Positions 63,146 through 64,000 of a stretch of 64,000 nt of DNA are shown in pieces. The translations under genes and the position numbers were made by a program. The notes below the pieces were generated by a model that saw only the letters and a list, made by a program, of their open reading frames with translations, made no database searches and was not told the origin of the DNA. This stretch comes from Candidatus Omnitrophota bacterium. GTDB lineage: Bacteria > Hinthialibacterota > Hinthialibacteria > Hinthialibacterales > Hinthialibacteraceae. Every line of letters starts with the position of its first letter. Positions within the stretch are counted from its first letter, which is position 1. Where the stretch lies: contig JABLXU010000039.1 of assembly GCA_013177805.1 (NCBI GenBank), positions 1-64,000 of the forward strand. The letters are read 5' to 3'.

Positions 63146-63163
63146 TGGCAACATGGTGCCAAA
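63146..63163. promoter_or_regulatory. Inverted repeat at the predicted gdhA transcription start
   Basis: TTGGCA-ACATGG-TGCCAA, 6-bp arms, N6 spacer. Confidence 0.4.
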
Positions 63164-63191
63164 TATAATTGGAATTAGAATTCCGGTCAAG
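63163..63191 (-). promoter_or_regulatory. gdhA promoter with embedded NrpR-type operator
   Basis: Minus strand TTGACC-N17-TATATT; the spacer contains GGAATTCTAATTCC (GGAA-N6-TTCC, 63172-63185). Confidence 0.65.
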
Positions 63192-63797
63192 AGGCAATAG
63201 AAAATTTTGAGTTTTTTTGGCATTTCCAGTGGACGATGCACGGTTACCCAGAAAAATCCACCGGTTTTTCATGGATGCCGGTTGAGAGACTCCCGATTTA
63301 TTCCACTCACCAGAGAAAAGGCCTAACGGAAGGGTAACGGACCACGTCTTTTTTTTTATTCCGTAAGGCGCGTATCCCGGCCCTCCTCCCTCCGATCCAC
63401 TTACTTGAGACAAATCGATTGATTACCAGGGAATGAATCGTGGGCTTGTGGCCGCCGATGTCCATGAAAGTAGATCGATCTCATTCCATCTCTCAACTCA
63501 TGTGAGATTGCGTTTGATGATTTCAATAAGCTTTGATGGATTCAACAAGATTCTATGGAAGGGCCGGCGTGATCATCAGGAGCGCCTGATCCAGAGATTG
63601 CCAATTTCGGATGAATTCCCCTGGTTTTCAAGGAATCTTTGTCTATTATTATGGTATGGAATGCCGGATATCTGCCAAATATTCGGACGAAAGTTGAAAA
63701 TATAATGGTCAATAAATAGGATTTTTGCCATTAAAAGGCGAATTCAGCCACATTAAAGAGACCCAATAGATATTTTTTCGCCAAATCGAGATCCTCC

Positions 63798-64000
63798 ATG
63801 GTCGAAATCAGCCAAAAACAAAAAATCGCCATTCTCCGGGTGTTGCGCGATGCCCGGGAGCCTATCGGCAGTTCGATTATTGCGGAAGAAATCAAGGATT
63901 ACGGCTTTGAACTCAGCGGCCGCACCATCCGCCTCTATCTTCAGGAGCTGGAAAACCAGGGTTTCGTGACCTCGGCCAAGCGCGGCCGGGACGGCGGCCG
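63798..64000 (+). CDS. NrpR-like transcriptional regulator, N-terminal winged-helix (truncated by window end)
   Basis: Partial translation MVEISQKQKIAILRVLRDAREPIGSSIIAEEIKDYGFELSGRTIRLYLQELENQGFVTSAKRGRDGG matches the NrpR-type N-terminal HTH pattern. Confidence 0.65.
   Translation, partial: MVEISQKQKIAILRVLRDAREPIGSSIIAEEIKDYGFELSGRTIRLYLQELENQGFVTSAKRGRDGG

What the first reader, a model, noticed from the sequence alone, without database searches (positions are those of the whole stretch)
63146..64000. NrpR-consensus operator sits exactly inside the gdhA core promoter, next to a divergent nrpR-like gene
The minus strand upstream of gdhA reads TTGACC-GGAATTCTAATTCCAAT-TATATT, a sigma70 promoter with a 17-bp spacer. 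The spacer contains GGAA-TTCTAA-TTCC with perfect 6-bp palindromic arms. GGAA-N6-TTCC is the known operator of NrpR, the 2-oxoglutarate-responsive nitrogen repressor of methanogens. The next gene, cut by the window end, begins with a winged helix of the NrpR type. Regulator, operator and an ammonium-assimilation target lie within 1 kb. One GGAA-N6-TTCC per window is expected by chance, so the weight comes from its placement and neighbourhood. A second N6-spaced inverted repeat (TTGGCA-ACATGG-TGCCAA) overlaps the predicted start site.
Basis: partly seen in the sequence, partly recalled or inferred. Interest (0 to 1): 0.9.

Follow-up and report, generated by a model that had tools for sequence, protein, structure and literature searches.

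The report
Bacterial NrpR repressor controlling gdhA
An uncultured bacterium and its relatives carry a close cousin of the nitrogen-sensing repressor NrpR of methane-making archaea next to their ammonium-assimilating glutamate dehydrogenase gene, with a conserved NrpR-type DNA site lying over the predicted start of that gene's transcription.

Summary
The regulator is real. The gene cut by the window end is a 339-aa HTH_12 + one NRD1_2 protein (PF01995, E 3e-73) whose effector domain matches the archaeal NrpR-like structure 3NEK by sequence and fold. It is divergent from an NADP-type gdhA in all 10 of the 14 genomes of its class that have it, plus a Sumerlaeota-labelled MAG; the four genomes without it lack this gdhA. 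At all 11 gdhA promoters a GGNA-N6-TNCC-type box (imperfect in four) follows a TTGAC promoter, mostly right after the -10. Tandem copies 24 bp apart are common. The same design sits at a glutamate-synthase-like gene in Abyssubacteria-like genomes. gltB has the box in two genomes; glnA, amtB and the second GDH do not. GGNA-N4-TNCC boxes sit at nrpR's own promoters. Best reading: a bacterial NrpR represses gdhA as archaeal NrpR represses its targets; 2-oxoglutarate control is inferred. New variant of a known kind.

The parts
61696..63036 (-). gdhA, NADP-specific glutamate dehydrogenase, 446 aa: the regulated gene
   Evidence: ORF; Pfam ELFV_dehydrog; NCBIfam equivalog NADP-specific GDH PRK09414, 770.7 bits against a cut-off of 536
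63185..63190 (-). -35 element TTGACC of the gdhA promoter
   Evidence: sequence; TTGAC upstream of the box in all 11 gdhA promoters; no transcript mapping
63162..63167 (-). -10 element TATATT of the gdhA promoter; the spacer to the -35 is 17 bp
63145..63162 (.). conserved operator box A, TTGGCA-ACATGG-TGCCAA (GGCA-N6-TGCC core 63147-63160), covering the predicted transcription start near 63155
   Evidence: full-consensus box at the edge of the -10; a box follows the -10 in all relatives' gdhA promoters
   Evidence: no box at this offset in the relatives, several of which keep a second box 24 bp on the other side of box A
63798..64000 (+). nrpR (5' part; whole gene G000:C33:63798-64817, 339 aa): winged helix HTH_12 + one NRD1_2 effector domain

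Best explanation
The divergent gene encodes a bacterial NrpR with one winged-helix DNA-binding domain and one NRD effector domain. Acting most likely as a dimer, it binds the inverted repeat GGNA-N6-TNCC. At gdhA the main site (63145-63162) starts at the edge of the -10 element and covers the predicted start site. A second site, 24 bp away inside the -35/-10 spacer, should help a second dimer bind. Bound NrpR would exclude RNA polymerase and keep gdhA off. By analogy with the archaeal protein, high 2-oxoglutarate (nitrogen shortage) would release it. Shown here: the protein family, the conserved gene pair, the conserved box and its place in the promoter, and the 24-bp tandem spacing. Inferred: that NrpR is what binds the box, that binding represses, and that 2-oxoglutarate is the effector.
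For: NRD1_2 at 246 bits against a cut-off of 25, and HTH_12; match to MJ0159 structure 3NEK by sequence, E 1.3e-22, and by fold, E 1.5e-18, TM 0.89 on the target. nrpR found in 10 of 14 genomes of the class; in exactly these a gdhA 74-84% identical to the window's lies divergent and adjacent, and the four without nrpR lack it; an eleventh case in MAG JAFGFN010000153. A box follows the -10 in the gdhA promoters, with principal-box scores of 7-9 of 9 in all 11. The box score 24 bp towards gdhA averages 6.22 against a background of 2.57, sd 0.72. GGNA-Nk-TNCC stands out in 13 target/nrpR intergenic regions only at k=6 (14 against 1.75 in shuffles) and k=4 (15 against 1.74), and not in 48 other promoter regions of these genomes. 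In genomes with a NrpR only 43-46% identical, nrpR adjoins a glutamate-synthase-like gene, and in two of three the same TTGACA-N17-(-10)-GGCA-N6-TGCC design is present. Nearly all other promoter-plus-box matches inspected lie inside coding sequence.
Against: No binding, transcription or start-site data. No box at glnA or amtB, the archaeal-type targets. In three genomes of one genus the box lies about 9 bp further downstream and is imperfect, and the JAFGFN box is imperfect. nrpR2 could share or compete for the site. GDH is often used at ample ammonium, so induction under nitrogen shortage would be unusual physiology.
Confidence: 0.82

Rival explanations
1. The gdhA boxes are bound by another regulator, and NrpR sits beside gdhA for other reasons, for example a shared operon history.
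For: No protein-DNA evidence; short inverted repeats with GG/CC ends suit many winged-helix dimers. nrpR of this genome has no clear N6 or N4 box at its own start.
Against: The half-site agrees with the published NrpR operator GGAA-N6-TTCC (as stated in the finding and from my own knowledge). The box follows nrpR to a different target gene, glutamate-synthase-like, in a distant group. Genomes without nrpR also lack this gdhA, and their glnA, amtB and gltB promoters have no box.
Confidence: 0.1
2. The reader's GGAA-N6-TTCC itself is a chance palindrome with no role, and only box A works.
For: 9 such words in the window and 322 in the genome; no relative has a box at this offset; its outer flank on one side departs from the consensus.
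Against: It lies exactly 24 bp from box A, the same step that separates the tandem boxes of five relatives on the other side, in a genome that lacks the box there.
Confidence: 0.3
3. NrpR here senses something other than 2-oxoglutarate, or activates rather than represses.
For: The main target is GDH, not glnA or nif; the effector is untested; the bacterial effector domain is only about 27% identical to MJ0159.
Against: The box covers the predicted start site, a place typical of repression. The NRD core is strongly conserved from MJ0159 to bacteria. The predicted targets consume 2-oxoglutarate.
Confidence: 0.2

Closest known systems
NrpR of Methanococcus maripaludis (repressor of nif and glnA; two nif operators)
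   Same: Winged helix + NRD; inverted-repeat operator with a 6-bp spacer; two operators at one promoter; nitrogen-assimilation target
   Different: Bacterial host and sigma70-type promoter; one NRD instead of two (M. maripaludis domain count from my own knowledge); target gdhA, not glnA or nif; third operator position variable. The operator paper itself was not readable here; its title is in the reference list of PMC9765008
NrpRI/NrpRII of Methanosarcina mazei
   Same: Single-NRD architecture like NrpRI; a GGTA-N6-TACC operator variant fits GGNA-N6-TNCC (from memory, not checked)
   Different: No separate HTH-less NrpRII partner seen in this genome; both PF01995 proteins carry the HTH
MJ0159 NRD structure (PDB 3NEK)
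   Same: Effector domain fold, E 1.5e-18, TM 0.89 on the target
   Different: About 27% identity; the 3NEK chain has no winged helix
Database-named bacterial 'NrpR regulatory domain / DUF128' proteins
   Same: Same domain pair; more than 2,000 relatives among the candidates scored, with names from Omnitrophota, Sumerlaeota, Planctomycetes, Lentisphaeria and Abyssubacteria
   Different: I found no paper in the library describing their operator or targets

Membership tests
NrpR | NrpR regulatory domain (PF01995) | tested here: met
   246 bits against cut-off 25; fold match to 3NEK
NrpR | N-terminal winged-helix DNA-binding domain | tested here: met
   HTH_12 at 51.6 bits against 21.4, residues 10-78; confident model
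NrpR | Inverted-repeat operator with 6-bp spacer (GGAA-N6-TTCC type) at the target promoter | tested here: met
   GGNA-N6-TNCC type box at gdhA in 11 genomes, imperfect in four of them; binding itself not shown
NrpR | Controls nitrogen-assimilation genes (glnA, nif, amtB, glnK) | tested here: inconclusive
   Box at gdhA, at gltB in two genomes, and at a glutamate-synthase-like gene in Abyssubacteria-like genomes; none at glnA or amtB. nif and glnK promoters not examined separately
NrpR | Release from DNA by 2-oxoglutarate | not testable with these tools
   Needs purified protein
NrpR | Tandem operators bound cooperatively | tested here: inconclusive
   Tandem boxes 24 bp apart in six genomes, counting the window's own and a degenerate one; cooperativity untested

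The most novel reading that the evidence does not exclude
One NrpR reads two operator classes: GGNA-N6-TNCC over the start site of its target gene and GGNA-N4-TNCC at its own promoter (pairs 43 bp apart in four genomes, 152 bp apart in two others). This would build a feedback circuit in which the spacer length sets a different response.
Probability: 0.4. Interest if true: 0.68.

Novelty: new variant of a known kind. Interest (0 to 1): 0.6.

Why it matters
NrpR is known experimentally as an archaeal nitrogen regulator. Bacterial relatives are named in databases, but I found no study of one. This locus supplies a predicted operator, its place in a sigma70-type promoter, a target gene and a conserved spacing in several uncultured groups. 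The same operator at different ammonium-assimilation genes (GDH in one group, a glutamate-synthase-like gene in another) makes an archaeal-type nitrogen switch directly testable in bacteria.

Tried and rejected
GGAA-N6-TTCC alone as evidence: rejected, too frequent. Genome-wide regulon by WTGGNA-N6-TNCCAW: 36 hits in this genome against 7 in the reversed control, but most sites inspected lie inside ORFs, including window 4568-4585. Intergenic leads were gdhA, nrpR2, gltB and one unidentified promoter at C41:35754. glnA, amtB and the second GDH as targets: no box above shuffles. A promoter+box pattern returned gdhA in five genomes and otherwise almost only coding sites. A sigma54 site in TTGGCA-ACATGG-TGCCAA: rejected by eye, the GG to GC distance is one base too short. 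Autoregulation of nrpR in this genome: no N6 or N4 box near its start. Fetching an archaeal NrpR with its helix for comparison failed. The key NrpR operator papers are not held.

Full report
What is there. The window is the first 64,000 bases of a 75.8-kb contig (G000:C33) of a 5.58-Mb bacterial genome assembly in 93 contigs. Taxonomy is tentative. The closest named proteins are labelled Omnitrophota and Candidatus Hinthialibacter; the latter is almost identical, over the stretch compared by eye, to the protein of G002, which is in the same family as G000. A Sumerlaeota-labelled MAG carries a 59% identical NrpR. gdhA (61696-63036, minus) passes NCBI's NADP-specific GDH model.

The regulator. 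Extending the contig shows a 339-aa protein starting at 63798 with HTH_12 (residues 10-78) and one NRD1_2 domain (87-325, 246 bits against a cut-off of 25). The PDB match is MJ0159, 3NEK, E 1.3e-22 by sequence. An AlphaFold2 model (mean pLDDT 89.9) matches 3NEK with E 1.5e-18 and TM 0.89 on the target. A 59% identical paralogue lies elsewhere, not beside gdhA.

Conserved pair. Among 14 genomes of the class, 10 have this nrpR. In exactly these 10 a gdhA lies divergent and adjacent, 74-84% identical to the window's in the nine relatives; the other four have only about 30% identical GDHs. JAFGFN010000153 is an eleventh case.

Conserved operator. Reading the gdhA strand in all 11, the promoter is TTGAC, a 16-18 bp spacer and a -10, followed by a GG-N10-CC box. 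Examples: TATATT-TGGCACCATGTTGCCAA (window), TATATT-GGCACAATAATGCCAA (G002), TAATAT-TGGAAATATAATTCCAT (G005). The box starts 27-31 bp from the start of the -35 in eight genomes and 37 bp in the three genomes of one genus; four of the 11 boxes have a mismatch in the GGNA half (the three of that genus and JAFGFN). A second box 24 bp further towards gdhA is present in G002, G005, G010 and G012 and, degenerate, in G003. The mean score there is 6.22 against a background of 2.57 (sd 0.72).

Specificity. GGNA-Nk-TNCC in 13 target/nrpR intergenic regions stands out only at k=4 (15 observed, 1.74 expected) and k=6 (14 observed, 1.75 expected); none of 200 shuffles reaches either. Taking one genome per genus gives 11 and 13, and 48 other promoter regions from these genomes show no such peak. 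The sequences are related, so the shuffle numbers overstate independence; the fixed position and the change of target gene are the stronger arguments. gltB has a box at -280 in G000 and -301 in G002, at the same distance (38 bp, counted by eye) from a TATAAT in both, but not in other relatives. glnA, amtB and the second GDH have none.

A distant group. There nrpR is divergent from (G037, G060) or directly downstream of (G061, followed by a P-II gene) a gene that I read as an FMN-type glutamate synthase from its sequence; NCBIfam gave it no name and Pfam was not run on it. In G037 and G060 the promoter is TTGACA-N17-TATTAT/TAATAT followed by a GGCA-N6-TGCC box. No box was seen in the intergenic parts of the G061 cluster.

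Own promoter. At nrpR the half-sites are the same but the spacer is 4, not 6: ATGGCATTCTTGCCAT and ATGGTAATATTGCCAA in G006, with pairs 43 bp apart in G006, G007, G008 and JAFGFN, and 152 bp apart in G037 and G060; G002's nrpR2 has ATGGAAGAATTTCCAT at -45. Whether NrpR reads both classes is open.

Mechanism. A repressor dimer on a box from the edge of the -10 across the start site would exclude RNA polymerase; the box in the -35/-10 spacer would add to this. Release by 2-oxoglutarate is taken from archaeal NrpR (PMC4902934, PMC9765008) and is untested here. Rewiring from glnA/nif to GDH or glutamate synthase is the main difference from the archaeal system.

Verdict. An NrpR-family protein by every sequence and fold test available, with a conserved, well-placed operator at a nitrogen-assimilation gene: a new bacterial variant of a known kind of switch. 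Binding and effector remain to be shown.

Noticed in passing
intergenic regions upstream of nrpR in G006, G007, G008, G009, JAFGFN (L031), G037, G060; G002 nrpR2 at -45: GGNA-N4-TNCC boxes at nrpR's own promoters, enriched as strongly as the N6 boxes, in pairs 43 or 152 bp apart; not explained.
   Followed up: partly
L003 (G000:C33) 4832-7471 (+) and 7569-10178 (-), beyond the window end: Two ~870-aa proteins with a PPDK_N domain, converging, right after nrpR; function unclear.
   Followed up: no
L003:10240-11553 (-), beyond the window end: A second glutamate dehydrogenase, closest to the archaeal-type GDH model; in G010 and G012 it lies beside gdhA. It has no NrpR box.
   Followed up: partly
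window 53887-58907 (-): A run of genes that look like heterodisulfide-reductase/MvhD-type subunits; a similar HdrC-like ORF recurs at L003:12860-13429.
   Followed up: no
window 4568-4585: TTGGAATTCGTATTCCAA, a full-consensus box inside a predicted coding sequence (4319-5464, minus); probably chance.
   Followed up: yes
L202 (G061:C27) 2361-5506: Glutamate-synthase-like gene, nrpR and a P-II gene in a row on one strand, a candidate nitrogen operon without a visible box.
   Followed up: partly
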